From Enoplosus armatus (lineage: Eukaryota > Chordata > Actinopteri > Centrarchiformes > Enoplosidae), in assembly GCF_043641665.1 (NCBI RefSeq), contig NC_092195.1, positions 19,442,774 through 19,506,773 of the forward strand: a DNA stretch of 64,000 nt. Reading direction: 5' to 3'. Below the pieces are notes generated by a model. It made no database searches and was not told the origin of the DNA. It worked only from the letters and a program-made list of their open reading frames with translations. Made by a program: the position numbers and the translations under genes. Shown here in pieces: positions 3,828-35,734 of the stretch. Position 1 is the stretch's first letter, and the number at the start of each line of letters is the position of its first letter.

Positions 3828-6800
3828 ATGGAGAAAGACAGAGATGTGCCCAAGTAAGTAATACTATATATTCTGTTAGTTTTTTATTTGTCAGTAATAG
3901 AAGTTAATTCAAGCTATTAACAAAAACTGTTTATTTAATTAGAAATAATTTGAAAAGAATCAACAATTAGTTCAACAATCGTTTTATTTTGTAATTTAAT
4001 ATTTTTCTGTAATTGCAGTTATTTATGTTTTCATGTATACAGTTGTTGATTGTTTAGGTCATTAGGTCTTTCTTATTAATCATTTATAAGCAGTAGATAA
4101 ACATGTAATAAATTATTTATAACATGTTATATTGTAGTTATATACATGTATAATGATATTATTAGTAATTTTGACAATTATCAATTATTATTTCAACTTA
4201 TTCTATAGAGACATTATCTATCAATCTATGTCATTCTTCTTTAATGTATTACATCATATTTTTGCTGTATATGTACTATATTTCTACTTCCCGCCTCAAT
4301 AGTTTTCGACCTGCCTTCCTTCTTCAGACTTTGACGTTGTGGTGTCTTTATTTAGGAGGCCGTGGGATACCTGTGAAGAGGTCCCGGTCATTGCAGATGA
4401 ACAGACGCCATGGAAAATGATCAAACTACTAAAGATCATCACTCTGTATCTCGTCGCTGTGATTGTGTTTGGATTGGCTTTCTGTAGCAAGGTTTGCTAA
4501 TTATTATTATTATTATTATTTTTTATGCATACATAGCATTAATACTATGAATATGTAATACTACAGCTAAACACTACAGAAGTAACCATTGAATTTGTGA
4601 TTTCATTAGAATCACTCAACTCTAGCTGCTGATTCTACATTGCCCTCATATCACGGTATTAAATAACTGATTAACTCCTTTTCCCAGACTTCTTTCCTCC
4701 TCCTCATCACCTTGTCCAACGAAGGCACAAAGACCCTCCGAGATGAGCAGAAACCTGTTGCTCTGCTGTGTATCGGCTGCTCTCTCATCATTTCCAGTGT
4801 CTTTCTATTTCTCAAAAGCATCTGGAAATCATGCTACAAAACATCAAAGCTGCCAAGAAAAACAACTACAGCCCTGGTAAGACAAGAGTCAACATTTCCT
4901 AACTTTATGTCTTCTGTTGCTGATGCCAAAAACAGAGCCTGGTAGGTATCTTGACGCTTTTCTTTACCATGTTTCTAAATTTTCTTCTGCTTCTTCTTCA
5001 GGTTCTGTTCTTTGAGTTCATAGTGGCTCTGGGTGCAGCGATTCTCACGATCGTGGCAATGCCACACCTGGACATCGTGACCAACGTGACGATACTGAAC
5101 GGCGTTGCCGTCTTCTCTGCACTCCTACAAGTGATCACTCAGTGCACTGCCAAAGAAAGGAACCGCTTCCTGGTGCCGTCCATCACCGCCTTCATCCTCA
5201 TTTTGCTCGGTTACATCCTGTTCCTCGTCTTATACATCACGAAAGACCCTTCTGATATCAAAATGATCATTTGGGTGGGTCTGGCTGTTGGTGGCTCCTT
5301 CTTGGTGTCTTTCAACTGGTGGGAGAGCTACTTGAGACTGATCAGTGAGAACAGCAGCTCCGTCTTCCTCAAGAACCTGTGCAGAGATGTGAGAAAGTGC
5401 CAGAATGTGCTGCACATCCTCTCCAGCCTGCTCAGGATCGCGGTGACCGCCTGTGTGCTCGGAGCCTACGTCCCTCTGGCCAAGATGGACTGGGACATAG
5501 TGACCTCCATCCCGAGGCGTGAGACAAAAATTATAGCCATCATCATTGGGGTCCAGCTGGTCTCCTCTGCACTCTGCCACTGGTTTTCATTGGTAGCCTG
5601 CAAGATGCACGCCCTGCGACGATGCTTCATCCTGCCTTTGTACCTGGCCTCTCTGGCTGTCATGGTTCTGCTCATCGTCCCCGTTATCGTTTACTATCAG
5701 GACTACAGAACAAGTCTGAACGGGACCGCAAGCATCAACTTCACAGGCTACTGCAGTGAAGTTGTAGACGGAAGAAACCACAGCTTGAGCGGCGGCGTGT
5801 TCCCACATCTGGTTTTGGATGTTACACACACTCTGTGCTTCCTGGACATGTCCAAGATAACTGACGTTGGCATACTGACAGGTAATAAAGTAGACTCTGG
5901 TATAAGTTATACATATTATGCACAAAAATATGGTTAAAGATACTGTACTGTCTTTAGGGTCACCAGACCCAAACAAATAGAGTACAGTTTGTTAGTATGT
6001 CAGCCAAATGCGGAGGTCCTACATACCTGTCAGCCCCAGTGCTCAGGTGTGTACAGGAGCCATTGCTTTAAACTTTGGATCATGATGTATTTTTTTTTTT
6101 AAACAAAATTGGGAATGATCAATCATGCTCCATACGTATTACCAGTTAACCCTGCATGCTTATTTCATTATTTAGTGCTGCATTTTGTGGATACACTTAA
6201 CAACTCGGTACTTTGATTTGTTCGTCAATCGTCCTTCAGGTTCAGCAGTGTCCTGGTGGCTCGGTCTGGTGTTGGCCACTCTCCATCTGTGGTACCTCAA
6301 CCTGTATCGTATCCAGAGGACCCAAGACCTGTTCACCAGGAGGCTGTATGAAGGAGCCTTTATCGAGCAGTCCCTTCTCCTCAACACCCGATTCGACATC
6401 CAGACCAAAAACAGGGTGAAGACGTAAGTGTTTGTGGTGTTTGGGTAGGAGAAGTCCTCCAATTCGGTCCTCACAAGAATCATCTAAAACATTTTAGGCT
6501 GGTTAGGCTATCAAGTTACAGTTACATTGTCTCTTCTCCAAACAAAATTATGTTTCTCAAATTTGCGCATCTTGTCATATCAAGTTTTCGGGCATTTGAA
6601 ACAGCGATGGTGTATCTGTGCGCGACCATGTGGCACGAGACCTACGATGAGATGATGAACATCATTATCTCAATATTCAGGTGAGTTACACGGACTCCTT
6701 TTTTTGCAGAGAAATTCTATCATCTTCTACATCTGTTGCTGCCCAAAATTCACTCACAGTGGAGTTCCTCACTGTTCCTCTGTATGTTTCTCTGAATACT

Positions 6801-9800
6801 GCAGGCTGGACAAGTACAGACCGAAGACAGAGCAAAAGTTCACAGATTTCACTTTTGAAGCTCATATCTACTTTGATGATGCATTCAAAAATGTGGAGGG
6901 GAGTCGGGGGCGTCACCTCAACGAGTACGCAGAGAGCCTTGTGGAAATCTTCACAGAAGTTTATGGGTAAGAACCATGTTAAAGATGGTCTACACAGTTA
7001 CAGTGCATTTAGTGAGTCTCAAAAATGACCATAAAGTCCAGTTCTGACCTGACAGTAGCCATCGGCACACCACCAGAGGAACACATTTTTCTCTCATTCT
7101 GTGTCATCAGCATCTTCACAAACATCGATAAGACGTTCTTCAGAAAGCAGCAGCACATCCCTGATCAGAAGATCATAAGGACACCGTACGGAGGTCGCCT
7201 TGTGGTCACCATGCCTCACGGGAACAATATCGTGGTTCACTTCAAGGACAAAGAACTCATTCGTCACAAGAAGAGATGGTCTCAGGTAGGAAAATAATGA
7301 CCTGTAGACTCCAGAAGGTACATTTACATGTACCGTTTACAGTTCACTTCATATTAAGAAATGTTTTTAATATATTGGAACATTTTTCTATTTCAAGCTC
7401 AACAATGCTTGAACACTTGAATCGGGAGAACATTTTGTTAATTGTTATTTCTTATTTTCCAGGTCATGTACCTTTACTATCTTCTGGGCTGGAAACTCAT
7501 GACCAAATATTACGCACGCTGGCAGAAGGGAGAGGATGAGAAGGAGCTGAGAGCGGCGGTGCGGGTGAGACCAGAGAAACACTTTTGTTGATGTTTTTGA
7601 TGAGTTTGAACACGCAGTATTTCTAAATAAAGCCTAAATTTAAAACAGAGCAAACTGTGCCTGTTCTTCCAGAAAGAGAAGCACAACACCTACCTCCTGG
7701 CTTTGGATGGGGACACAGACTTCCAGCCGGCTGCTGTGATGCTGCTCATCGATCGTCTGAAAATGTACCCACGTGTCGGGGCAGCATGCGGCAGGATTCA
7801 CCCCACTGGATCAGGTTGGCACATTGTACAATTTAAATAAGCTAAGAGAAGACAGGAAATCATCAATCATATGAATAAATAGCTCAAAGATCCACCATTG
7901 AAGCTGAAAAACCAACAGTGACTGGCACTAGACAGACATTTGTGTTGAGGTTTACATTAGCTCTGTATTTCCTCCGCAGGTCCTGCGGTGTGGTTCCAGA
8001 AGTTTGAGTACGCCGTCAGTCATTGGCTGCAGAAGACAGCGGAGCACGTGATTGGCTGCGTGCTGTGCAGCCCCGGCTGCTTCAGTCTGTTCAGAGCGGA
8101 GGCGCTGATGGACGACAACGTGATGAAGAGATACTCCACCAAGTCCATGGAGGCGAGCCACTACATCCAGTACGACCAAGGTAAAGGACGATGGTTAACA
8201 GGACTTCCTGTTTCTTTCACTCTTGGTCTCTCCCTCCTCCTCTCACATATAAATGCATTTTGTGTTCCCTGCAGGTGAGGACCGCTGGCTGTGTACTCTG
8301 CTGCTGAAGCAGGGATGGAGAGTGGAGTACAACGCAGCATCTGATGCTTACACCAACGCACCTGAGGACTTCAAAGAACTCTACAACCAGGTGAGTCCTG
8401 CAGCTGATCAGAACCTTTCCACTAATATCATGATGGCCATAAAGTTCCCACAAATAATTCATATATTTCCTTCCGATATTCAGAATCTGCATATCAGAAT
8501 CATATATGAATGTGGATCTCATTGCTTGCAAGTTGTCATTAAGCCAAAAATCACATCAGTCATGCTAATGATTATTTGCCACCTTCAGCGTCGGCGATGG
8601 GGACCATCCACAATGGCCAACGTGGTGGATCTGCTGGGTTCCACCAACGTAATTTCCAAGAGGAACCCATCCATGTCCAAACTCTTCATGTTCTACCAGC
8701 TCTTCGCCATCACCTCAGCCATCCTGGCCCCTGCCACTATCTGCCTTTTGATCGCAGGTCAGTGTTTTGAGTTTGAGCACATGATCTCTGCACGTACAAC
8801 TTTTCGTGAACTTTTGAGATCAGCTAGACTTCACTGGACGTATGATTATCTTACAAATATTACATTTGAATGAATGCAAAAATAAAAGGCAAGAAGAACA
8901 TGTAATACTAATATGTATGCACGTTCCTCCTCTTTTGTGATCTCCAGGTAGTTTGTCTTTCATCTTTAACATGAATGCCAGCGGTGCCCTGGTCCTGGCT
9001 GTGATACCTCCTGTCATTTACCTGATTCTTTGCTTCAAACTCAAGTCAGACACTCAGATCACTATTGCAGCAATCTTGAGTGTCATATATGCATTCCTCA
9101 TGTTGGTGGTGACGATGTCTATTATTGGTAAGTTATATTCAAACAAGTATAACTTGTCTGCTTTATTTTGACTAAGTAAAATCATTTTAGAAGCACTGCT
9201 TGAACCTGCTTTAATTCCCAAAACTCTCCATACTTTTATCTTTCTTCAGGTTCAATGGTGAAGGACCGAACCATCCTGACACCCAGCAGCATTTTCGTCA
9301 TCTCCATGGCCATCATTTACGTCATCACTGCGATAATGCATCCTCAGGAAATTCAGCTGGTGTTCCACGGCTTTCTCTACATTATATGCATCCCCAGCGC
9401 CTACCTCCTGCTCACCATCTACTCCATGGTCAACATGAACAATGTGTCCTGGGGCACCCGGGAGACAAAACCTGCAGCTGGAGCCGCAACGCCTGCAAGC
9501 ACCCCACAAACAACAGCCCAGAAAGGTAGATACCAGGTTGAAAGTAAAAAAAGAGTCTATTGTCATGCCACTCACAGTGCAACACTAGACCAGTATTGTT
9601 CATGCTGACTGAACTGAAGCTGATCTTCATCCTTGCAGCTAAAAGCACCTTCCACCGACTCTTCTCGTGGGCCAAATGTTGTAAAAAATCCAGCCAGAGA
9701 TCTGGAGGCGGGCAGCTCAGTGTCAACCAGGAGAATCTGATGCCAGAGTTTGCACAGCCTGAACCCCAGCCCCAAAACACTATTGTGGAGGACATAAGGA

Positions 9801-12041
9801 TCCCTGAGGAAGAACAGAGGTAAGTTCAGGAGGTGGAACATCGATTGAAATGTACTGTGTCAGTAAGGTGTGCGATGATACTAATGATTTTCCTGATTGT
9901 GTTTCAGGCAAGTGGAGCCTGTGTTCGACTGTCCTGCCCAATGTAAGTTCAAACTATTTTGCAAAAATCAGGATGAAGTTTTGTTTTGCAAAAAATTCCG
10001 TTTTATACCCCCCCGTCTCGCTCTTTTCTCCAGGTTGGGTCACACAACTGCAGAATGCATCCAGTGACATGCGACTGCAGGAGGACTCACTCGACCAGGT
10101 GTGCATGTCTCGTTTTAGCAGCTTTTCATGATTATCTGCCTCTAAATCACATTATAATTGTCTGAAAATGATGCTCACCCTGTTCGGTTTCCCAGTGCAG
10201 GCGAAAACTGACCTTAACATGAAATTGAGGCATTTGTAGTAGTTTTTGTTATTTGCTGTATCTAAACATGCACAAATATAATGATGATTATTACAAATAG
10301 GACGGTTGATGCTCGTTACACAAATATTTCATTGTCCGAGTGGGTTTATACTGTTGCTAAACTCAAACACTAAGAGTGATGGTGAATTTTGGGATACACC
10401 AGTAAATGTGTACATACAGATTGTTTCCTGTCCTATCTGTGTGAGTTTTAAGAAATGTCAACATGAATTACATTTATAGGCTAATTAATTGAAAGGGTTT
10501 CTCTGCAGGAGGAGGAGCACTTCTGGAATGAGCTTCAGGAGAAGTACCTGCAACCTCTGGTTGATGACAAAGAGAGACAGAAAAAGATTGCCAATGACCT
10601 GCGAGAGCTTCGAAACAAGGTAGCTGTGGGGAGCTGAACTACGGTACATGTCTAACAGGAAATCACTGCGCAGTTCATCTTAAATTCATCCTATCACTTT
10701 TCATCTCACACAGATAAACTTCGCCTTCTTCATCATGAATGCCCTGTGGCTGGTGGCGACATTTACCCTCCAGCTCTTCGAGGCCTCCTTCTCCATCAAG
10801 CTCCCCAAGGTCGGCCTCGACCTCGTGTCCACCGGAGAATTCGTACAAATCGATCCCATCGCCTTCATGTTCATTCTGGGATTTGCCGTATCGGTTGTGA
10901 TCCAGTTCTTGGCCATGTTTTACCACAGGTGACCACTTTGTTTTCCCTCAACAGGGTTTTGATTTTGATAATGTTCATATATCTGTTTGTATAAAATCTA
11001 ACTTTCTTGTTCTGTGTTCATCCAGAATCTACACTCTGATCCATTACGTAGCCTTTCTGGACACAGAGCCCAAAGAGCAAAAACCTGAAAAAGAAGAATC
11101 TTTCCTGCCAAGCAAAAAGGTATTTACAACTGTTGCTGTTGTTTCTACCACTGCTACTGCTTCTACTAATAGCGTTGCTTATTTTAATACACCCGCTGCT
11201 GCTGCTGCTACTAGTCTACAGTTAGTATTGTAACAACTTGCAATGATACCAGAACTATTGATAAAAAAATATGTTCTTTGTTTATTGCAAATGTCCAAAA
11301 TACTAAATGGCACGCAACTTTTCTCATGAAAGTTAACTTATGAAACAGTCAGAACTTTTTGAGGCTGACATGCTCAAAAACATCAAGGGAGGTGTGCAGC
11401 ACTGCTGAAGACAAGACATGACTCGTAAAGATTCAATTAATTCTTCTACTAAGCACTGAAGAAGGTATATTAGTAGTAAAGTACATATACAGCTAAAGTC
11501 TACGCTGCACAACCGTGAGTCCTCATGCCTTCTTTTTATACTTGTTTTTACAGAAACATTTTATTATAGTTTGGGTTGAAAAGCAGTGAACCTGTGTGTT
11601 GACATTCAATCATGTCCAAGACCAATCAGCATTCATTGTTATTCTTATTTGATTTTAATCCACACAAAGGACAACAGCACTAGGATTTACCTCACTCTAA
11701 TTGTTCAGGTTACGTAAGATGCAAAGACAGAAAATTAAATTTAAATTGCCTTGAAAATACTTTGGCTTAATAACTGAAGCCAGCAGGTACTTATTGTAAT
11801 GACCAGCTGCGCCCTCCTGCCATTGCGGTTTCACTGGAACAAATATCTGAATCATCTGTCAGAAGTGTTCCAGGTGTGGTGGCAATTATGTGCGCTGATG
11901 TTCCTTCAATCTGCTCCCACCCAGGTCGATTCTGTGACTAACCCTGACTCCGACTCCCAGGACGAGTGGGAACCTGACAGCGATGATGAGTTCCCCTCTA
12001 GCTTGTACAACAGAAGTAGTGATGGAGGCACTATGGTGTAA
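3828..12041 (+). CDS. chs1: Chitin synthase, tandem copy A (22 coding exons, ~1283 aa)
   Basis: Membrane glycosyltransferase (GT2 family) that polymerises UDP-GlcNAc into chitin. Exons: 3828-3853, 4356-4491, 4688-4876, 5002-5881, 6240-6423, 6585-6680, 6805-6966, 7111-7285, 7463-7564, 7673-7814, 7980-8180, 8275-8390, 8589-8757, 8948-9127, 9250-9525, 9639-9819, 9908-9942, 10034-10098, 10509-10619, 10714-10928, 11026-11119, 11925-12041. All junctions are GT-AG and keep phase (3852 nt with stop). Visible: multi-pass N-terminal region (exons 2-5); DGDTDF from residue 662; SPGCF from 728; EDRW 766-769; QRRRW 803-807; membrane cluster in exons 13-15; WGTRE 987-991; heptad-like exon 19 (residues 1106-1142); another membrane region in exon 20; acidic tail rich in D/E/S. 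The architecture matches animal (insect-like) chitin synthases. The start gives MEKDRDVPK, parallel to copy B. Exon 4 is almost identical to that of copy B. The paralogue name is uncertain. Confidence 0.95.
4978..5889 (+). repeat. Near-identical block shared by chitin synthase copies (member 1)
   Basis: This 912-base block contains exon 4 (880 nt) plus 24 bases of the preceding intron and 8 of the following one. It matches 20685-21596 with a single visible difference (ATT versus ACT codon, Ile versus Thr). Adjacent exons 3 and 5 and the surrounding introns differ at many positions, so the identity is local. A gene conversion tract is the simplest reading. Confidence 0.9.
7641..7819 (+). repeat. 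Second homogenised block, exon 10 (member 1)
   Basis: The block contains the last 32 bases of intron 9, all of exon 10 (DGDTDF catalytic exon) and 5 bases of intron 10. It matches 24221-24399 with three differences clustered near the 3' end, one of which changes Arg (copy A, YPRVG) to Leu (copy B, YPLVG). The identity inside the intron, with unrelated intron sequence just upstream, argues against coding constraint alone. Confidence 0.8.
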
Positions 12042-18584: not shown

Positions 18585-19362
18585 ATGGATGAAGACAGGA
18601 GCTTGCCCAAGTGAGTAGACGTGTTCTTAAAATGCATAAACTTTTTTCATCTATTATTACTAATATGTATTATTTATTAGTTGATATTTAAAGGAGGAAT
18701 CAATTACAAGAGGCGTTAAGTAAAAGTACTACAGTATGACTTTTAGTGATTAGCAGTTTAACCTCCTTGGTTACCAACATTTTACCTCTTCAGGTAGAAA
18801 ACAAGAAAATATTTCATTATTTTTCAGTAAGTGGATTAAGTCAAAAATGGGTAAATACATCTATGTTCATAAACTACCTTAAAATAATATATTTTTTATT
18901 TATATTTATTATTCAAAGTTATTATTTAGTAGTTTGGTCTTTTAGAGTGCACAAATCAATTAAATAAATTATGGGACATTTATAAAAAATTTTTTTTTAC
19001 AAGATATATAAAGAGTGGACAAAAAATAATGAAAACCTGTACACGTCTATGTGATCCAGTCCAGCAAGTCTGCCTTTGTGATGCCAATAAAGTTCAGTTT
19101 TTGTTGACCATGAAGTCATTTTTGAGGCTTTGGTTTGTGGTTTTGTTGTATTGGATTGTAAATTCTATTGTGACCTCATCCTGTCCATCATCATCATCAT
19201 CATCATTCATATTCACATTCATGTTTAAACTTCATTACAGGAGCAAGTGTAGTTTTAGATATCCTTTAAGTACTGCATCAAATAAAGTAAATGAAAAGAG
19301 CAAAAAAGAAATTAAAAATTAAAACATTATCAAGATATACATATATATAAAATATATTTCCA

Positions 19363-19401
<39 letters not shown>

Positions 19402-22400
19402 TTATCATATTTACACAACATTTTGGACATTTTATAGATTTGTTTAAACATTTCTTTGTCCATTTTCTTAATTTCTTTAGTAATTTCCTAAATGATCTAA
19501 CCACACCTATCTGAGGAGATCTCGGTCTTTCACTTTCTAATGTATCTAATAACCAATCCTGCTTCCTACCGTTCTGCTCACCCAACAAACTCTCCCCCTC
19601 CCTCCTGCCTTCTTACCTTTCGTTCATTACTTCCTACCAATATCAGCTTCTACCTGCAGCCACCTCAGAGTTTGACATGTTTGCTGTCTTTAACCAGGAG
19701 GCTGTGGGATTCCTGCCGAGAGGTCCCCATCATTGAAGATGAACAGACGCCGTGGAAGATGATCAAACTACTAAAGACCATTTCCCTCAGTGTAGTCGCT
19801 GTGATTGTGTTCGGATTGGCTCTATGTAGCAAGGTTTGTTCTATATAAATAAATAAATATAAATATATACATAGTTTGTTTCAGTTAGAAAAATTAAATC
19901 AACCATTGGTCTTGCATGGGGATTATAACTTCAATTAAATCTAGGTTTTTAGTGGGACAGCTTTGATATATTTTGGGAAACCTGGGAAACTGTTTTACAG
20001 GGCAGTAGTGTAGTAGTGGTAAAAATTAACATTTAAAATAAAAGTTATTTCGTCTCCAATTTTGATTCTCTGTGTTTTCCTTTCTCATTCTCATTCTTAT
20101 ATCTTTCTGTCCTGCCGCGACTTTGTTCTCTGTTCCAGACGTCCTTCCTCCTCCTCATCACCTTGTCCAACGAAGGCACCAAGACCCTCCCAGATGAGCA
20201 GAAACCCGTCGCCCTGCTGTGCATCGGCTGCTCTCTCATCGCCTCCAGTGTGCTGCTCATACAAAAGAGCATCTGGAAGGCGTGTTACAAATCCTCAAAG
20301 CTGCCGGCTAAAAAGACTGTAGCATTGGTGAGTTACAGTTTACATATATCACATGTGTTTCCTGGTAGAAAACTGCAACGTGGTGAATCTTTCAATAAAT
20401 TGAGTGATAAAAACCAAAAGACTCCAGTTTCTCTAAGTGAAAAACAGTCATGAGGTTTTCTCCTTCCTTTGGGTCTTATTTGATATTATTTCTAATATTG
20501 AAATTTGATGTTTTCAATATAATGTTGCAAACCAGGACAGTCCAAATACTGCCTGCCTTTATGTTTATGTCTGCCTTTAACAGTTTTAATGTAAAGCTGA
20601 AATGATGCGTAAACAAAAAATGTGCACCTAGAAACTCTAATAAGAGTGAATGACGAAAAATGTTTTCTTCAATGTAAATTCTTCAATTTTCTTCTGCTTC
20701 TTCTTCAGGTTCTGTTCTTTGAGTTCATAGTGGCTCTGGGTGCAGCGATTCTCACGATCGTGGCAATGCCACACCTGGACATCGTGACCAACGTGACGAT
20801 ACTGAACGGCGTTGCCGTCTTCTCTGCACTCCTACAAGTGATCACTCAGTGCACTGCCAAAGAAAGGAACCGCTTCCTGGTGCCGTCCATCACCGCCTTC
20901 ATCCTCATTTTGCTCGGTTACATCCTGTTCCTCGTCTTATACATCACGAAAGACCCTTCTGATATCAAAATGATCACTTGGGTGGGTCTGGCTGTTGGTG
21001 GCTCCTTCTTGGTGTCTTTCAACTGGTGGGAGAGCTACTTGAGACTGATCAGTGAGAACAGCAGCTCCGTCTTCCTCAAGAACCTGTGCAGAGATGTGAG
21101 AAAGTGCCAGAATGTGCTGCACATCCTCTCCAGCCTGCTCAGGATCGCGGTGACCGCCTGTGTGCTCGGAGCCTACGTCCCTCTGGCCAAGATGGACTGG
21201 GACATAGTGACCTCCATCCCGAGGCGTGAGACAAAAATTATAGCCATCATCATTGGGGTCCAGCTGGTCTCCTCTGCACTCTGCCACTGGTTTTCATTGG
21301 TAGCCTGCAAGATGCACGCCCTGCGACGATGCTTCATCCTGCCTTTGTACCTGGCCTCTCTGGCTGTCATGGTTCTGCTCATCGTCCCCGTTATCGTTTA
21401 CTATCAGGACTACAGAACAAGTCTGAACGGGACCGCAAGCATCAACTTCACAGGCTACTGCAGTGAAGTTGTAGACGGAAGAAACCACAGCTTGAGCGGC
21501 GGCGTGTTCCCACATCTGGTTTTGGATGTTACACACACTCTGTGCTTCCTGGACATGTCCAAGATAACTGACGTTGGCATACTGACAGGTAATAAACTGG
21601 CGCTACAGTGTGACACCACACATCAAGAGATAATCAGGAACATGTTTGAACCTTAAACATTTCCCCCTTCAGAAATGGTCTTTTGGTGATCTAACTTGCA
21701 GGATGTCCAATAAACTGTGGTAGCAGATTAATTCTTTGCGAGCACTGTTGGTCACCATCTTTATGTAAAGCGTTCACCCATTCTGTTGTGGTGAGGCATC
21801 ATGGGAAATGTATGGAATAACTAAGTCATTCCTTTCATTCGTCTTCGTTCAGGTTCAGCAGTGTCCTGGTGGCTGGGCCTTGTGTTGGCCACTCTCCACC
21901 TCTGGCACCTCAATCTGTTTCGCATCCAGAGGACTCAGGACCTCTTCGTCAGGAGGCTGTATGAGGGAGGATTTTTAGAGCAGTCACTGCTTCTTAACAC
22001 TCGATTTGACATCCAGACGTCTGACAGGCTGAAGAAGTAAGTGTGGGTGTTGTGTGTGTGTGTGTTGGGAAGATCAGCAATACCCTACAAAGTGAGGTTC
22101 AAGTTTGGACTTCTTAAAGTGGTTATGGCGCAATTAGTTTAGGTTTTTGGTTTTGGTTAGTTTAAGACTGGGGTTAGACTGGGGTAAGGTTGAGTTGTTT
22201 GTCATTGTTTCCAAACCTTCTTTTTTCTTCCATGACACTTTATATACGAACTTACATAAATAAAAAGTTCAAAAAATCCAAAGTTTACAAACACAGTCTC
22301 ACTCACACAATATGGGGCTTCAAAAATAAATTCCATGACGCTTAGTGTTCAACCAAACGACTTCAAAATGACACAATGGATCTTAAAACCTCTCAGGTAT

Positions 22401-25400
22401 CACCATGTCTAACTATCATTGTATGAATAGGCCGAAACGTCCCTATTTTAACTAAATTAAAATAGATTGAGATAAGTGTGAAGGTTAAGATTATCTTTGT
22501 ACTGTAGTGCAGAGGTTTATGGCAGTTTGAGGTCAGGATTAAGCCTCTGAGATGCATAATGTCAGTTTTACAATGTAAAACCCATTTCTCAAAAATGCAA
22601 ATCTTGTCATTTCCAGATGCAGACCACAAGAACCGGTGAAAGTGTTCCTTTGCGCGACCATGTGGCATGAAACCTACAACGAGATGTTGAAGATAATTAT
22701 TTCAATATTTCGGTAAGTCTCACACAGGTTGCCTATGAGTGCCCTCAGAAACATTAACTTCCTAATTTAAATTTTTAGGGAGTAGTTTAGTTGTTGTCAC
22801 ATTGATGTGCATTTAGGTCGGTCATGGTTTTGATCACTGTGGTCACCTGTAGACCGAAAACTGTAGCAGAAGTATATATTTAGTTTTGTGCTCAAGGGAA
22901 ATTAAGGGTGTTTGCTGTCTTGGGAGTTTAAAACTTGATGTCCAGGTGCACAAATCACGGCTGTCATCTTGGATTGTACAATTCGGTTTCATCACTTCAG
23001 TTCTCTTCAAAATCCTGAACATTCATGGAAAACATGTGCAGTCTTGGGGGATTTTAGCAAAATAAAACATCTCTATCGCAATGTAACAACCTCCAATTTC
23101 ATCATGGTCGAATTCCCATTTGATTTTTTTTTTTCAGCTTCAATTTAGCATCATCACAGTAGCTTTGTGTGATTCTTGTAACTCCCCAGACTGGACAAGT
23201 ACAGGCCGAGGAAGGAAGAACAAGAAAAAAGCGATGTGACTTTCGAGGGCCATATCTACTTCGACGACGCCTTCAGAGATGTTCCCGGTAGTCGTGGGCG
23301 CCATGTCAATGAATATGCAGAGATGCTTGTGGAAATTCTCAGAGAAGTTTACAGGTAAAAACTCCAGTTTGATTTATAGAAAAGTCAAGGAATGAGACAT
23401 CACATTTATATCACTTTCACAGAAGCTGAAATATCTTTCATCCTCTGTCCCCAGTATCTTCGTAAACATGGATAAAGGCCTCTTTAAAAAGCAGCAGCAG
23501 GTCCCTGATCAGAAGATTGTGAGGACGCCGTACGGAGGACGTGTGGTGGTCACCATGCCTCATGGAAACAGTCTGATCGTTCACTTCAAAGACAAGCAAC
23601 TCATCCGCCACAAGAAGCGGTGGTCTCAGGTGGGGAACATTATGCGATTGAGTTTGAGTTACTATCCAGTTTAAAATGTCAATTAGTGCTTAAACATGTA
23701 CGGTCGTTGCCTGAGTTGTGATTTCTTTCAAATGTTGAATTGGATGATTTCTTTGTGGAGCAAAAGTTGACACCTAAAGTTCGCTTTTTTCAAGAACATT
23801 TAATTGCTTCTGATAGTATTTCTTGGGGAACATCTTTGGGTCTTTACTTGAAAATGAATACTGCATTTTCCACCTTTGCTGCGAGTAGTGCGATAATTTG
23901 ATTTCAAATATTCCATCCATCCATATTGAACATAAACCTGTTTTTTTTAAATCAAAATTTACAATATATTCATGTAGTTTTTAAGAGATAGGGTGTGTTT
24001 GCTGAATAGTATTTTGTATTTTCCAGATCATGTACTTGTACTATCTCCTGGGCTGGAAAGTTGCGACCAAGTATTTCAAAAGGTGGGAGAAAGGAGGAGA
24101 CGAGGCTGAGCTGAAAAGAGAGTTTGAGGTGAGATGAGAGAAAACACATGAACCAGTGCACACATAGACACAAACATACAATCATACTGTATATATTTCT
24201 ATATGAAAAGTAGTCACATGTAAAACAGAGCAAACTGTGCCTGTTCTTCCAGAAAGAGAAGCACAACACCTACCTCCTGGCTTTGGATGGGGACACAGAC
24301 TTCCAGCCGGCTGCTGTGATGCTGCTCATCGATCGTCTGAAAATGTACCCGCTTGTCGGGGCAGCGTGCGGCAGGATTCACCCCACTGGATCAGGTTGGT
24401 GATCGATCAATAAAGACAAGTCAGAAGCAACAACTACTGGGATCCCAGCATCCAATTGTACAGTCCATTTTAAATCAACCTAAGTTAATTCATGCATTAC
24501 AATACCAGGCCTCGCTGCGTATGGAGAGTCTTGGCTTTAATCCTCCATTCACTTCAGACAAGTGTACTTTTTGTGGCCAGTTGCCCCACAGCTCAAGACG
24601 ATCAACACATTGCAAATCAAAGAAACTCTCCCAGACAAATACACACAGTTTCTGTAGTAACAGTCCTGTATTTCCCTGGCAGGTCCCATGGTGTGGTACC
24701 AGAAGTTTGAATACGCAGTGGGCCACTGGCTGCACAAGACAGCAGAACATGTGTTCGGCTGCGTGCTGTGCAGCCCCGGCTGCTTCAGTCTGTTCAGAGC
24801 AGCGGCGCTGATGGACGACAATGTGATGAAAAAATACACCGTCAAGCCCTCAAAGGCTCTACACCACATCCAGTATGACCAAGGTAAGAGAAAAACCAGG
24901 AGCAGAACAGAAATGAAGCATGTTTAAGTGAATTGTATATAATTGTACTGTTGCTGTATTTTCACTGCCAGAGGGTGTGTTACTTAATGTCAGGTGTTTT
25001 CTTGCATACCAGCTGAAATCCTCTAAGTGTTAATTAACTCTCAGCAGTGTCTATAGCTCAAACCAAGCTGCTTGTAAGTGCAAGACGTTTCATAAGAAAG
25101 TCAGTCGCTAAGCACAAATATTTATGCTAAATATTTAGCACCTCCTGCCTGCTGTTCTTTCCGCAGATCAATGAAGACCAATTGACTGCAGTTGCTAAAT
25201 GTCACTTTCTCTTGATTTGTGTCTGACAATCTCTATGATCGTCCCTGCAGGTGAAGACCGCTGGCTGTGTACTCTGCTGCTGAAGCAGGGATGGAGAGTG
25301 GAGTACAACGCAGCCTCTGACGCCTACACCAATGCCCCGGAGGAGTTTAAAGAGTTTTACAACCAGGTGAGCCATTCAAAGCCTTTTGTAATTCAGATGT

Positions 25401-28400
25401 ATTCAGCAGGGTGCTGTGCTAACTCTGGGCCTGCTGCTGTAGAGGCAGAGAACACTGATCTGCGCGTGTTGCCTACGGGTGACAAATACAGCGACATTGT
25501 CCTTGCAGCACTTTTTGGACCAGATACAAACTTGTTGAGTGCCGTGCCAAAGAACAGACTCATGATCATTAAAGATAATTACCAGGCATGTGTCAATATG
25601 AAAAAGTACAATTATCTAAGCCAAAACTATTCTGGCACTCTGACAATGATGGCATTGTGAAATAAGATGTAGAAGCTTAATCATTACTTTAAAAATATCT
25701 TCCTATATAACTTACCTCATTAAATGACGTTGCTTAAATGACTAAGAAAACCACAATGGAGCTTTGTCTCGACCAACAAAACACTGGATTACTGAACACG
25801 CTGGTTCTTCAGCTGAAAGTATGGCGAGCCACAGAAATACTACATCATCATCGTCTAATATTTGAACATTTTACCATGTGATTCATGATAATGTTTACTT
25901 TCCATGTTCAGCGTCGTCGATGGGGACCGTCCACCATGGCCAACATTGTGGACTTACTGGGCTCTAGCACCTTGGTTTCCAAGAGGAACCCGTCCTTGTC
26001 CAAACCCTACATGCTCTACCAGCTCTTCAGCTTGGCCTCGTCCATACTGGCACCTTCCACCGTCGTCATTATGATTGCAGGTCAGGCTTGTTTTTGAGGT
26101 TAATGTTATTTTACTGCCAAATAAAAAAAGCTTAGCAGGAAATGAAGATTTTACGGTTTTACTTTAAGCATTAGAGCCGATTTGTGGATCGTGCAATTCT
26201 TAATTTTATGCAAAAGTATTTGTTTTCATGTATATTACTTCTACAACAGGTGCTTGTTACTAGACAGCAATATCCACCAGTGCCCACTGAGCATGCAGTT
26301 AAAACAATATATCTACAGATTATCCTGTTGAAAAGTTTATTTGGTTATAAAACAAAGTTAAAATCAATTCATTATTAGATGGTGGAAGACATTTTGATGG
26401 ATTTCATGGATTACTCAATTTCCAGTACCATGTAATTTGTTGCTCAGGTGATAAAAGGTTTATTGCTAATGAATGGGTGTGGTTTATTACATTAGGTCAT
26501 GGTGACATAACTATGTGTTTTGAAAACCAGTTCTTTTGTTTGCGTCCTGTCTACCATTCAGGTAGCTTGACTGTGTTGCTTGACATCCACCCCAACGCTG
26601 CTCTGGTCATGGCCGTGATACCTCCTGTTATCTTCCTCGGTATCAGCTTCAAGCTCAAGTCAGACACTCAGATTCATGTAGCAGGGATCATGAGCATCCT
26701 GTACGCCTTCCTCATGATGATAGCAGCACTTACCATAATAGGTATGTTAGACACAAACTCGACAGTCAACAAAGCCTGTTAATACGAAAAGACTTCTGGC
26801 TTCTAAGTGTCATTTTCCATCTGTTTATCTTCCATCAGGCAACATGGTGAAGGACAAAACCATCCTGAGTCCCAGCAGCCTCTTCATCATCGCCCTCGCC
26901 TGCTTTTACATCATTACTGCACTCATGCATCCTCAGGAGGTTGGCCTGGTGTGCTTCGGCTTGCTTTACATCGTCTGCATCCCCAGCGCCTACCTGCTGC
27001 TGGCCATTTACTCCATGGTCAACCTGAACAACGTGTCCTGGGGCACCAGAGAGACAGCGCCTGCTGCCGGAGCTGCCAAACCTGCAGCCGGCCCCCCACA
27101 AACCCCAGCCCAGAAAGGTAGATACTAGTCGAAACTAAAGCTAGAATAGAATATTGTACATGTGTACTTGAAGAACGATAATAACTCCTAATATTTGTTG
27201 TTTTACAGCCAGTTATTTACACATTTCACATGCTGAGTCACACTGGACCAGTTATTGAGTAATCCAGCAACCTTCTGTGATATAATTAATCGTGTCATTA
27301 ACAAATTCACTCACCCTGTAGTGAAAACATCAAAATAGTGTCAACTGTTCTTAAAACTACTTAAGGCGCTGGGGATTGCTAGCCTGGTATCAAAAGACCA
27401 ATTCACAAATGCAAACGAGTCTGGAGCCTCTCAGTTCATTTGCGATTTCCAGGGGGGGGTTATCAACGGGCGCAGAACAAAATGCGCTTCAGCCAATCAG
27501 AGCAACGAAACATGTGATGTAGCGGCGGGCTTCTGGGCTAGGTAGCTAGTTCCAACATCCAATTCATGTGGCTTCTAGTTCAACATAATGTACGTAACGT
27601 GAGCTACCGTCCAGTTCGTTTAATACTGACGTGATAGATTCAGAACGTTCCACATCAGCGGCAGCCATCGTTGTTTATGAAAATGCCTCAGTGGCGCTTA
27701 CGGCGGTTGTGATTGTCTGAACGGGAGGGGGGCCAGACGCACCTGCCAGAGCAAATAAAACATGAGCTCGCAGATTTGTTTGGCTCCCAGGCTAGGGGAT
27801 TGAGAGTTTCCAAAACAACAAAAATTACATTTGTGAAATGACATGGTTTTTACATGGTTTTCAGTATAAAGGGTCTTCACTTAGGCTGCTCTGCTTGATG
27901 CAAACATAGGACCCTTTCCCATTTCCTCATTTAAACTACTAACACTATTAATCAGTTACACGATGCTGCTATATTTGAGATTTGAGTTGAGCTGAAACTG
28001 ATCGTTCTCCTTGCAGCCAAAAGCGCATTCGTATGGTTCTTCACGAGGGCCAAATGCTGTAGAAAACTCTGTCAGAGAGGCAGTGCAGAAGAGCTCATCG
28101 TCGCAGAGGCCGCAGAGCCTGAACCTCAACCCCAAAACACCATCGTGGACGATGTGAGGCTGCCTGAGGAGGAGCGAAGGTAAGATCTGATCAAATGTAA
28201 TGTTGGCCATATTATCAGTAAGTGGAGAAACTCCTGAAACCCATAATGTATACTGAGTTGTCAACCATGCAGTATGAAGTGTTAGATGGTTCAGTTGGTG
28301 GACACATTGATTGAGTCATTTTTTATGTTGTTTCAGGCAAGAGGAGCCTGTTCTCACCTGCCCTAACCAGTGTAAGTTCTAATATGAGGGACTTTAGCAA

Positions 28401-29753
28401 AACTTAGCTTAAAATCGGTTGCAAAAATTGATGATAGACATACTTTCATGTTGAGTAATATTTTCCTGTCTTGCTCTTTTCTTCAGGTTGGGTCACACAG
28501 CTGCAGAGTTTGTCTGATGACATGCGGCTGCAGGAGGATAAACTCAACCAGGTGCAAATTTCTCATTTTATCACGAAACGTAAATGTCTCATATTTGCAT
28601 CATAGCTGTCCTGTGTCTCTTTATTACCGCTGCTAAAGATTACGTGTGATCGCCTCTGTCCGTCCCTGATTCTGTCTCTTTGATTGGGATGAAAATGTGT
28701 CGTAACGGCCATATTGGCAAGACATTCGCTGCACTTTTAAAGTTGAAATGTGTTTAAATTATGTGACTCTGTGATTATCTGGGTCAGAGATATCAGTTTT
28801 TAATCTTGTGATGTTTAATCCAGCTCTGCAAACAGCCCCAACACTAAATAATCCAAAAAATAATGGAAAAAAGTGGAAAGTCATGATGATATTTGTGCAG
28901 TTAGTGTCAGCATGGAAAGATTTTAATAGTGAAAAAAATCCATCAAACTGCTTCATAATTGCGGATTTTGGCATGCACCTTTAAGTCAACCATATAAACG
29001 ATATGTTTTTCCAACCCTACTCCAACTTTTAAGCAGCATGATATATACATGAAGCATAACACTTTATTGAGAGAGTTTCTGTATTTCTCTGCAGGAAGAG
29101 GAGCAGTTCTTCAGAGATCTGACAACCAAATACCTGGAGCCTCTGCCTGAGAACAAAAAGAAGCAGAAGGAAATGGCTGATCAACTCAAGGAGTTGAGAA
29201 ACAAGGTAACTATGTGTCACAGTGGTGAATTAAACAAAATAAATGTTTGTGAAACCCTACAATGATGCTGTTATCAAATGAATGACAACGTAAAATTGTA
29301 ATGAAATGAATATTCTTTTCTCTTCCCCTGTGCAGATTACCTTCGTCTACTTCATTTGCAACGCCTTCTGGCTCATAGCGACCTTCACTCTCCAGCTCTC
29401 AGAGACGTCCATCTTCATCCAGGTGCCAAAGGTCGACATCAACCTGCAGTCCACTGGAGAGTACATGTACATCGACCCTCTGGGCTTCATGTTCATCCTG
29501 TCCTTCGCCCTGCTGGTGGTCATCCAGTTCATAGCCATGCTGTATCACAGGTACCCAATCACCTGTCGTATCAAATCAAAGACGACAAAGATGTTCCGGA
29601 TGCAGATAGATCAGTTACTCCTTGTTCATTTTTACCTGCTTGTTCTGTGTTTTTTTTTAGAATATGCACCCTGATCCATTTTGTGGCCTTTCTGGATACA
29701 GAGTTCAAGTCTGAAAAACAAAAACAGCCACAGCAACAGGTACATACTATTGT

Positions 29754-34165: not shown

Positions 34166-35734
34166 TCAAACTTTAGCTACATCCACTGATGTCTGATTCC
34201 TTCCCGCCACCACAACGGTAGTGTGTTTCGACCCAATGCTGTCATCCACAGAGCGTTCGTTGGACTGGGTCGTCTGTCCGTCCTCGTCGTCCGCCAGAGC
34301 TCTCTTGTAAACCCCCGCCAGACTCTGCCTGAACCGTCCCCTCACGTCCAGCCCCATGCAGAAGTACAACAGCGGGTTCACACAGCTGTTGAAGTAGGCG
34401 ATGCCCGACGCCATGGGGTGCCAGATCTTCACCACCATGTTCTTATTATCCACCATCTTCACCAGCAGGAGGCAGTGGTACGGCGCCCAGCACAGGAAGA
34501 ACGCGACGACTAATGACGCTAATATGCGTAGGGGGCGGGACTTCCCGGACAAGCGGGTGCGTCGGATGCCAATTCCGGCCAGGATGTAACAGATGAGGAT
34601 GACCATGAAAGGCAACATGAAGCCACACAGGAAGCGGATGGAGTAGAGAGCCAGTTTAGTGCCGGTGTCTCCCCCCTTCTCCTTCGAGTCCACAGAGCAC
34701 TTAGTCAGGTTGTTCTTCCCCTGGTAGACTTGGCGGTAGACGAAGTACGGAGAGCTGAAGGCGATGGCGGTGGCCCAGACGCAGGCAGCCACCACCCTCG
34801 CGGCCCACAAGGTGCGTCGTCGCCTTGTGAAGACGGGCTGCCAGACGCAGAGCACTCGGTCCAAACTGATCACAGCCAACAGGAAGACGGAGCAGAACAT
34901 GTTGGCGTATTTGAAGAAGCCGTTGAACTTGCAGAGGAAGATGCCGAAGGGCCAGTGGTTGAAGAAGAGCTTCTTAGTGAGGGAGAAGACTCGTGTGAAG
35001 CAGAAGATCAGGTCTGCTATCGCCAGATTCACCAGCCACACGTTGGTGACCTTTGGCTGAGGGGGAAGACGGAAAAGAGGCAGCCATTAATTTACTCCTC
35101 CCCGAAAGAGCGATTATCCAATCACAGCTTGGCAACCGTAACTACACACAGCAGGTCTGACATGTGTACTTGGGGCTTTAATAAGAGTCTTTTTTTCAGC
35201 CTATTTTGTGCTGTTACAGTCTCGGATTGAAAAATACCTGTTCAGGACTGAAACATTGACCCTGTGGGAGTCAAGATGCTCGTATAGCAGAGACCAGAGC
35301 AACTCTCACCTGCTCTTTATTTGGTTTCAGGGAAGTTTACACTCCAGCATCTCTGGCCAAGCTTGCTTGTTTGAGTCGCTATTCAGAATGCAGAAATGAG
35401 CTCAGTCTCTATTACATTTTGAATATCACACTCCTAATTATAAAAATAGATTAGAGATAATCATGGAGTAGAGTGAATAAATGTAGTGTCTAGTGGTCTC
35501 GTCTTAAATGATAAATGTTCTGTTTAAGTAACTCATTACAGACTGTATATCCACCTTGAGCTTGAATCCGGCCACCCAGATCACCATGGAGTTCCCTGTG
35601 ATGCCGAGCACGACGGTCAGCGTGTAGAGGACGATGGAGACGTTGTCCATGATGGCGTCAACGTCCACAGTTGTCGCCTGGTCATTCTTGGAAGACTTGA
35701 CGATGTGAGGAGGCAGAGAGGTGTTGAGAGACAT
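34166..35734 (-). CDS. Chemoattractant-type GPCR (formyl peptide / chemerin / anaphylatoxin receptor group), 356 aa
   Basis: Class A seven-helix receptor at the leukocyte-type cell surface. Coding exons on the - strand: 35734-35555 (60 codons) and 35056-34166 (296 codons and stop), joined in phase 0 at GFKLK|PKVTN. Visible: N-glycosylation sites near the N-terminus, GN in helix 1 (residues 47-48), LAIAD in helix 2 (71-75), disulphide cysteines C102 and C180, DRV (126-128) in place of DRY, FFLCWAPY in helix 6, NSCVNPLLY at the end of helix 7, and an acidic, Ser/Thr-rich tail. FNHWPFGIFLCKF, SRPLRIL and MGLDVRGRF resemble formyl peptide receptors; NMFCSVFLL and RFLCGF also resemble the chemerin receptor and C3aR. 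The second extracellular loop is short, unlike mammalian C3aR. The ATG at 35734 sits 7 bases after a TTTTCCAG acceptor, so a non-coding first exon is expected upstream. Exact orthology is unresolved. Confidence 0.88.

What the first reader, a model, noticed from the sequence alone, without database searches (positions are those of the whole stretch)
4978..5889. 912-bp gene conversion tract over exon 4 of the tandem chitin synthases
The block matches 20685-21596 at 911 of 912 positions as far as I can see, including 24 bases of upstream intron and 8 of downstream intron. Exons 3 and 5 directly beside it differ at many positions and the rest of the introns are unrelated. Such a sharp edge is expected of recent interlocus conversion, not of purifying selection. 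The tract encodes the large N-terminal multi-pass region.
Basis: seen in the sequence. Interest (0 to 1): 0.8.

Follow-up and report, generated by a model that had tools for sequence, protein, structure and literature searches.

The report
Fish gene pair re-copying one exon
Two neighbouring chitin synthase genes in a fish share one nearly identical exon although the rest of the two genes has drifted far apart, and the same exon appears to have been copied between the two genes again and again in spiny-rayed fishes, which makes it a natural test case for how duplicated genes stay tied together or break free.

Summary
Confirmed and enlarged. The window is from Enoplosus armatus. Positions 4978-5889 and 20685-21596 match at 911 of 912 bases, covering exon 4 of two complete tandem chitin synthase genes. 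Exon 4 differs at 0 of 146 fourfold sites; the 19 exons other than 4 and 10 differ at 92 of 269. The published assembly rests on 103x HiFi reads, so an artefact is unlikely. In 23 percomorph species with both copies, the exon-4 proteins are reciprocal nearest neighbours within the species in 17 of 23; for exons 5-14 without 10, in 0 of 23. Copy type changes 20 times on the exon-4 tree (one clade rejected, p-AU 9e-5) and once on the rest. Other copy pairs, in a loach and in Anableps, show the same conflict, though most non-percomorph pairs do not. Exon 4 is three times longer than any other exon and is the faster-diverging part in old pairs, so constraint does not explain it. Best reading: chronic interlocus conversion of the one long homology block left; why this exon is inferred.

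The parts
3828..12041 (+). Copy A: complete chitin synthase gene, exons 1-21 at 3828-11119 plus last exon from 11925; identical to NCBI protein P0002 (chs-2-like, Enoplosus armatus)
   Evidence: spliced model; protein match; last exon; Pfam Chitin_synth_2 113 bits
18585..30896 (+). Copy B: complete chitin synthase gene, exons 1-21 at 18585-29739 plus last exon from 30816; identical to NCBI protein P0024 (chs-1-like, Enoplosus armatus)
4978..5889 (+). Conversion tract in copy A (24 nt of intron 3, exon 4, 8 nt of intron 4)
   Evidence: 911/912 identity to 20685-21596
20685..21596 (+). Conversion tract in copy B
   Evidence: a search of the 580-Mb genome returned these two places only
5002..5881 (+). 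Exon 4 of copy A, residues 118-411, N-terminal multi-pass region
   Evidence: hydrophobic segments; weak Pfam ChitinSynthase_IV_N 22.2 bits, below its 23.5 cut-off
20709..21588 (+). Exon 4 of copy B
5270..5270 (+). The only difference inside the tract (T here, C at 20977; Ile/Thr)
7641..7770 (+). Second, shorter identical tract in copy A: 32 nt of intron 9 and the first 98 nt of exon 10
24221..24350 (+). Second, shorter identical tract in copy B
5326..5433 (+). Codons 226-261 of exon 4 (copy A): stretch that keeps a weak copy-specific signal in other percomorphs
   Evidence: paired-swap test; alignment; placed from the codon numbering

Best explanation
The block is the product of interlocus gene conversion between two tandem, same-strand chitin synthase genes whose exons 4 lie 15.7 kb apart, and the conversion is chronic: exon 4 has been re-copied between the two genes independently in many percomorph lineages since a duplication near the base of the group, while the exons after it (apart from a short tract in exon 10 of this species) have evolved as two separate genes. 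Shown here: identity and edges in the window, neutral-site identity in the window, species-wise grouping of exon 4 against copy-wise grouping of the rest in proteins of other fish, and the same conflict in other pairs in a loach and in Anableps. Inferred: homologous repair (gap repair or synthesis-dependent annealing) needs a long uninterrupted match; once introns and short exons (26-279 bp) had diverged, only the 880-bp exon 4 was long enough, and each conversion renews the match that allows the next. Exon 4 is thus a self-renewing homology island that stays in concerted evolution until a lineage goes too long without an event. Confidence in recurrent exon-4 conversion about 0.95; in homology length as the main reason for exon 4 about 0.5.
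For: Window: 911/912; fourfold sites 0/146 against 92/269 in the 19 exons other than 4 and 10, dS 0 against 0.72, longest run 633 against a permutation maximum of 83. Genome: two matches to the exon found. Other fish, 23 species with both copies: the exon-4 reciprocal nearest neighbour is the own paralogue in 17 of 23, for exons 5-14 without 10 in 0 of 23; the nearest row has the same copy type in 9 of 46 against 46 of 46. Exon-4 tree: 20 changes of copy type, p-AU 9.47e-5 against B as one clade, log-likelihood loss 1531; rest: 1 change, support 98. In 15-residue windows the within-species excess is +0.02 to +0.25 in exon 4 and -0.02 to +0.04 from exon 5 on, leaving aside the window across the exon 4/5 border (+0.06); exons 2-3 show 0.01-0.09. 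0 of 23 pairs are identical in exon 4 (1 to 98 residue differences), so gene models that borrow the other copy's exon cannot explain it. In the 17 of 23 pairs for which a contig is listed for both copies, the contig lengths are equal, which points to one chromosome. Other pairs: Triplophysa dalaica exon 4 265/274 against 560/742 for exons 5-21 without 10, p-AU 1.75e-9 on exon 4 and 0.0013 on the rest; Anableps 280/293 against 556/667, p-AU 4.8e-6 and 0.0015. Against constraint: in four old pairs that stay in separate deep clades in both trees exon 4 is 36-42% identical while the rest is 59-61% (Hemibagrus wyckioides, Clarias gariepinus, Neoarius graeffei, Sardina).
Against: Comparisons with other fish are at protein level; nucleotide tracts were read only in the window, and whether exon 4 is a single exon elsewhere was not checked. 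6 of 23 species are not reciprocal neighbours: four wrasses, Anabas, Ophioblennius. Exons 2-3 show a weak version (2 of 23 reciprocal; ortholog signal +0.015 and +0.032), so the left edge is not absolute; exon 4 as a whole keeps a small but detectable copy signal (+0.002, p 0.0015). Exon 10 (142 bp) was also converted here, so length is not a strict rule. Outside percomorphs 14 within-species pairs were compared: exon 4 exceeds exons 5-21 by 0.05 or more in 3 (Triplophysa, Anguilla, one of three Chanos pairs), and in the loaches Paramisgurnus and Misgurnus it is lower (0.67 against 0.77, 0.64 against 0.73). Further percomorph same-type pairs are mixed (Oreochromis 0.87 against 0.82, Gambusia 0.99 against 0.91, Pholidichthys 0.96 against 0.98, Stegastes 0.91 against 0.95). 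The groups tested were picked after the trees had been seen; Gambusia is borderline there (0.0145 on exon 4, 0.060 on the rest) and the eel inconclusive. GC3 is only slightly higher in exon 4 (0.704 against 0.652 in copy A, Fisher p 0.10). Against a non-percomorph baseline 23 of 23 pairs are above expectation, but percomorph orthologs of different species are also 0.17 above it, which leaves a corrected excess of only 0.06 for Ophioblennius. Direction of transfer was not determined.
Confidence: 0.85

Rival explanations
1. Selection keeps the exon-4 copies matched: both enzymes need the same N-terminal membrane domain (shared partner or mixed complexes), so conversions there are favoured and those elsewhere are removed. 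Conversion is still the mechanism; selection explains the place.
For: The tract coincides with one hydrophobic region. Elsewhere the copies differ widely. Residues 226-261 keep a weak copy-specific signal inside the converted exon (p 0.0015; exon 4 without residues 225-262 p 0.046), which would fit conversion being selected against at one spot.
Against: Exon 4 is not conserved across species (cross-species orthologs 0.775 and 0.791) and several lineages let the copies drift apart (four wrasses 0.76-0.87, Anabas 0.79, Ophioblennius 0.66). The tract includes intron bases and ends where homology ends.
Confidence: 0.25
2. A long-lived recombination hotspot lies in exon 4: percomorphs lack PRDM9-directed recombination, so breaks fall at stable CpG-rich or open-chromatin sites, and exon 4 is one of them.
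For: Within the two gene spans, 400-bp windows (step 100) passing GC>0.5 and CpG o/e>0.6 occur only at exon 4 (5001, 5401, 20701). [quoted passage not shown]
Against: The CpG excess is slight (o/e 0.60 against 0.54 and 0.52 in the other exons), and exon 4 is the only exon long enough to fill a 400-bp window. A passage in PMC11600626 reports that hotspots differ greatly between two stickleback populations, which speaks against stable sites. No recombination map was available.
Confidence: 0.15
3. One single recent conversion in Enoplosus without earlier history.
For: One difference in 912 bp.
Against: The same exon groups by species in 17 of 23 percomorph pairs and in two further pairs elsewhere.
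Confidence: 0.03
4. Assembly artefact: one copy of exon 4 was pasted from the other.
For: Sharp edges and near identity look like a paste.
Against: Published assembly: HiFi 103x, mean read 10.5 kb, Hi-C, hap 1 of 579.88 Mb in 135 scaffolds (PMC12488967, passages), close to the held genome of 579.67 Mb in 134 contigs; such reads span a 912-bp block with its unique flanks. Assemblies of other species show intermediate values.
Confidence: 0.02
5. Transfer through a cDNA or other spliced RNA copy.
For: The tract is close to an exon.
Against: 24 nt of upstream intron are shared with exon 4 and 32 nt with exon 10.
Confidence: 0.01

Closest known systems
Long-lasting concerted evolution of mammalian gene pairs BMP8A/B, DDX19A/B, TUBG1/2 (PMC2720389; passages read)
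   Same: Linked duplicate pairs; only some exons evolve in concert, for over 100 million years by the paper's title, while others diverge; no clear overlap with known functional domains
   Different: There the search required two consecutive exons with their intron, and raised GC was reported for most regions; here one exon with almost no intron, and GC3 barely raised
Tigriopus GOT1Sd/GOT1Sr paralogues (PMC3728101; passages read)
   Same: Interparalogue conversion largely restricted to exons, with an intron too diverged to align; islands of divergence in the other GOT1 pair
   Different: Populations of one species and exons in general; here one exon of more than 20, across many fish families
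Primate red/green opsins (review PMC3924837; passages read)
   Same: Tandem pair, ongoing conversion, a divergence peak kept inside the converted region
   Different: Introns are homogenised and exon 5 is kept different by selection; here the reverse arrangement
Yeast whole-genome duplicates with concerted evolution restricted to coding regions (same review, citing a personal communication)
   Same: Non-coding parts dropped out of conversion long ago
   Different: Coding regions as a whole; here a single exon
Fish chitin synthase families (PMC10234404, PMC3942024, PMC1971071; passages read)
   Same: The same gene family; Atlantic salmon has three chitin synthase genes in its MHC IB region
   Different: No mention of gene conversion between chitin synthases was seen in the passages read

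Membership tests
Interlocus gene conversion | Block of near identity between paralogues with sharp edges | tested here: met
   911/912; adjacent exons 0.81 and 0.83
Interlocus gene conversion | Identity extends to neutral sites | tested here: met
   0/146 fourfold sites and 24 intron bases
Interlocus gene conversion | Tract phylogeny conflicts with the rest of the gene | tested here: met
   p-AU 9.47e-5 on exon 4; rest supports the copies at 98; proteins only
Interlocus gene conversion | Both flanks keep their own locus identity (non-reciprocal transfer) | tested here: met
   Exons on both sides of exon 4 differ between the copies in the window
Interlocus gene conversion | GC-biased tract | tested here: inconclusive
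   GC3 0.704 against 0.652 in copy A, p 0.10
Interlocus gene conversion | Donor and recipient identified | not tested
   No unconverted close relative with both copies was at hand as DNA
Concerted evolution | Paralogues of one species more alike than orthologues of different species, repeatedly | tested here: met
   18 species: within-species A-B 0.911 against A-A 0.775 and B-B 0.791; 17 of 23 reciprocal
Chitin synthase (GT2) | Chitin synthase catalytic domain | tested here: met
   Pfam PF03142 113 bits against cut-off 27; solved chitin synthases match residues 682-991, E 1.4e-16
Chitin synthase (GT2) | Makes chitin | not testable with these tools
   No experiment
Retroposed or cDNA-mediated exchange | No intron bases in the transferred block | tested here: not met
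   24 and 32 nt of intron shared

The most novel reading that the evidence does not exclude
Exon 4 of fish chitin synthases is an intrinsic conversion site not tied to one lineage: in several linked pairs of different origin this exon, and hardly any other, is captured into concerted evolution, either because it is a stable break site in fishes without PRDM9-directed recombination or because it is the last homology block above the repair threshold, and it has sat near the tipping point between homogenisation and escape for about the age of percomorphs.
Probability: 0.25. Interest if true: 0.8.

Novelty: new variant of a known kind. Interest (0 to 1): 0.6.

Why it matters
How duplicated genes escape from gene conversion is an old question, usually studied on whole genes. 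Here one exon is still tied while the rest escaped, and 23 species span a range from 1 to 98 residue differences in it. That makes the homology-length threshold and the time between conversions measurable across many existing genomes. It is also a warning: a fish tree built on this gene mixes two histories, and the names chs-1-like and chs-2-like do not follow the copies.

Tried and rejected
Purifying selection on exon 4: rejected by neutral sites and by old pairs in which exon 4 is the faster part. Chimeric gene models: rejected because 0 of 23 pairs are identical in exon 4. GC-biased conversion: no clear signal (p 0.10). A baseline from 2948 cross-species pairs that are not both percomorph overstates the excess, because percomorph orthologs also exceed it by 0.17; it is not used as main evidence. 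Eel pair: inconclusive. Exon 10 as a recurrent tract: not supported, 0 of 23 reciprocal. Structure prediction of P0090 with 48 rows gave mean pLDDT 59.0, pTM 0.44; too weak for a fold search, which was not run. Whether this genome holds further, more distant chitin synthase genes could not be asked (see below). No paper on conversion in fish chitin synthases was seen in the listings (13 of 13 papers listed; 15 of 32; 12 of 26), judged by titles and the starts of abstracts; others (no paper; 12 of 19; 4 of 4) looked for single-exon or longest-exon cases. The library holds open PMC papers only.

Rows dropped: P0037, P0038 and P0040 (further tilapia records); one search used 57 of the proteins new (left out: P0133, P0134 and P0141, which are over-long, and P0192-P0195 and P0197-P0205) plus 24 chosen percomorph rows; where a species had several rows of a copy the longest was taken; Seriola dumerili was dropped. 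Each protein search listed only its best 120 hits (of 509, 448 and 1520).

Full report
Observation. The two blocks match at 911 of 912 positions, the single difference being at 5270. Both genes could be modelled through 21 exons with AG/GT borders and open frames plus a last exon, and the models agree with two NCBI proteins of Enoplosus armatus, P0002 (copy A) and P0024 (copy B). Exon 4 is 880 bp; the next longest exon is 276 bp in A and 279 bp in B. The block carries 24 bases of intron 3 and 8 of intron 4. Identity drops to 0.81 in exon 3 and 0.83 in exon 5.

Is it more than chance or constraint? In exon 4, 0 of 146 fourfold sites and 0 of 224.5 synonymous sites differ; over the 19 exons other than 4 and 10 fourfold differences are 92 of 269 and dS is 0.72. 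The longest identical coding run is 633 nt; 10000 permutations of sites reached at most 83. With an assumed neutral rate of 5e-9 per site and year (recalled, not measured here), no difference at 224 synonymous sites puts the last event within roughly a million years or so. Exon 10 carries a second tract, 130 identical bases with 32 of intron.

Artefact? The window lies at G000:C25:19442774-19506773 in a genome of 579,668,879 bases in 134 contigs; a search with exon 4 returned two places, both in the window. The published assembly of this species is built from 103x HiFi reads of mean 10.5 kb and Hi-C and is phased and curated; hap 1 is 579.88 Mb in 135 scaffolds (PMC12488967, passages). That the held genome is this assembly is my inference from the near match. 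No reads were seen.

Other fish. 129 proteins were aligned. A tree of exons 5-14 without 10 splits them into a B clade of 43 rows (support 0.977) and an A group of 85 rows (support only 0.33 with the single catfish outgroup). With 57 outgroup rows and 24 percomorph rows both copies are clades (1.0 and 0.996), and the early branch Genypterus falls in A, so the duplication is about as old as percomorphs (an age of 100 million years or more is recalled, not measured). The exon-4 tree mixes A and B, mostly by species and genus. In 23 species with both copies, the exon-4 reciprocal nearest neighbour is the own paralogue in 17, in exons 5-14 without 10 in 0; nearest rows share copy type in 9 of 46 against 46 of 46. 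When all 128 rows may compete, the exon-4 count is 14 of 23 and the other still 0. Copy type changes 20 times on the exon-4 tree (p-AU 9.47e-5 against one clade) and once on the rest. In 15-residue windows the excess of within-species identity is high through exon 4, falls away at exon 5, and is faint (0.01-0.09) in exons 2-3.

The exceptions inform. Four wrasses, Anabas and Ophioblennius are not reciprocal; in the exon-4 tree the wrasse A and B rows form two sister groups, as if conversion stopped near the base of the wrasses. Ophioblennius has drifted to 193/291. Four old pairs that sit in separate deep clades in both trees (Hemibagrus wyckioides, Clarias gariepinus, Neoarius graeffei, Sardina pilchardus) have exon 4 at 36-42% and the rest at 59-61%: left alone, this exon diverges faster than the rest. 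Identity is therefore maintained by copying, not by constraint.

Other pairs. In loaches, the copy P0185 of Triplophysa dalaica groups with Misgurnus P0176 in the rest (support 99.9) but with its own paralogue P0178 in exon 4 (99.6); each alternative is rejected (p-AU 1.75e-9 on exon 4, 0.0013 on the rest). In Anableps the same holds (4.8e-6 and 0.0015). Gambusia is borderline (0.0145 and 0.060). The eel is inconclusive (all; groups chosen after seeing the trees). The pattern is not universal: of 14 within-species pairs outside percomorphs, exon 4 exceeds exons 5-21 by 0.05 or more in 3, is level within 0.05 in 5, and is lower in 6, among them the loaches Paramisgurnus and Misgurnus.

Mechanism. 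Shown: copying at DNA level in the window, with intron bases shared and both flanks kept, and repeated exon-4 exchange in other fish by protein trees. Inferred: homologous repair using the tandem neighbour, restricted to exon 4 because it is the only long match left and because each event renews that match. This would explain the tract ends at the limit of homology, the drift once conversion lapses, and the recurrence in other pairs. It does not by itself explain exon 10. Selection for matched membrane domains and a hotspot remain possible drivers. Inside exon 4, residues 226-261, mostly between two hydrophobic segments (203-221 and 252-272), keep a weak copy signal (p 0.0015; exon 4 without residues 225-262 p 0.046; the stretch was chosen after looking at the alignment), the sort of island ascribed elsewhere to selection against conversion (PMC3728101 and PMC3924837, passages).

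Known or new. Sub-gene concerted evolution over 100 million years and exon-restricted conversion are known (passages). What differs is the confinement to a single exon among more than 20, in the longest and fast-diverging exon, recurring across many percomorph families and in at least two further pairs. No report for fish chitin synthases was seen in the listings; these were partly capped lists of open papers.

Noticed in passing
window 27371-27802, intron 15 of copy B: Insertion-like stretch with terminal inverted repeats TAGCCTGG / CCAGGCTA flanked by an 8-bp direct repeat GGGGATTG, as in a small non-autonomous hAT-type element (type recalled); copy A's intron 15 is 113 bp against 899 bp.
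   Followed up: partly
window 34166-35086, minus strand: Open frame of a rhodopsin-family G-protein-coupled receptor (Pfam 7tm_1, 176.6 bits), also the most CpG-island-like part of the window.
   Followed up: no
P0049 (Spinachia, A), P0053 (Pungitius, A) and P0089 (Gasterosteus, B): Insertions of different length after about residue 234 in exon 4; in Spinachia and Pungitius only the A copy carries one, although much of the exon around it is homogenised.
   Followed up: no
Dicentrarchus labrax P0004, P0097, P0102, P0104, P0105: Four A-type rows and one B-type row; the exon 4 of P0097 and P0104 groups with that of the B copy, which suggests exchange within a larger array, unless some rows are alternative models.
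   Followed up: no
Ophioblennius macclurei P0052/P0121: The most diverged exon-4 pair of the 23 (193/291); [quoted passage not shown] The link is speculation.
   Followed up: no
NCBI names of the listed proteins: chs-1-like and chs-2-like do not track the two copies: copy A is called chs-2-like in Enoplosus and chs-1-like in Dicentrarchus (copies).
   Followed up: partly
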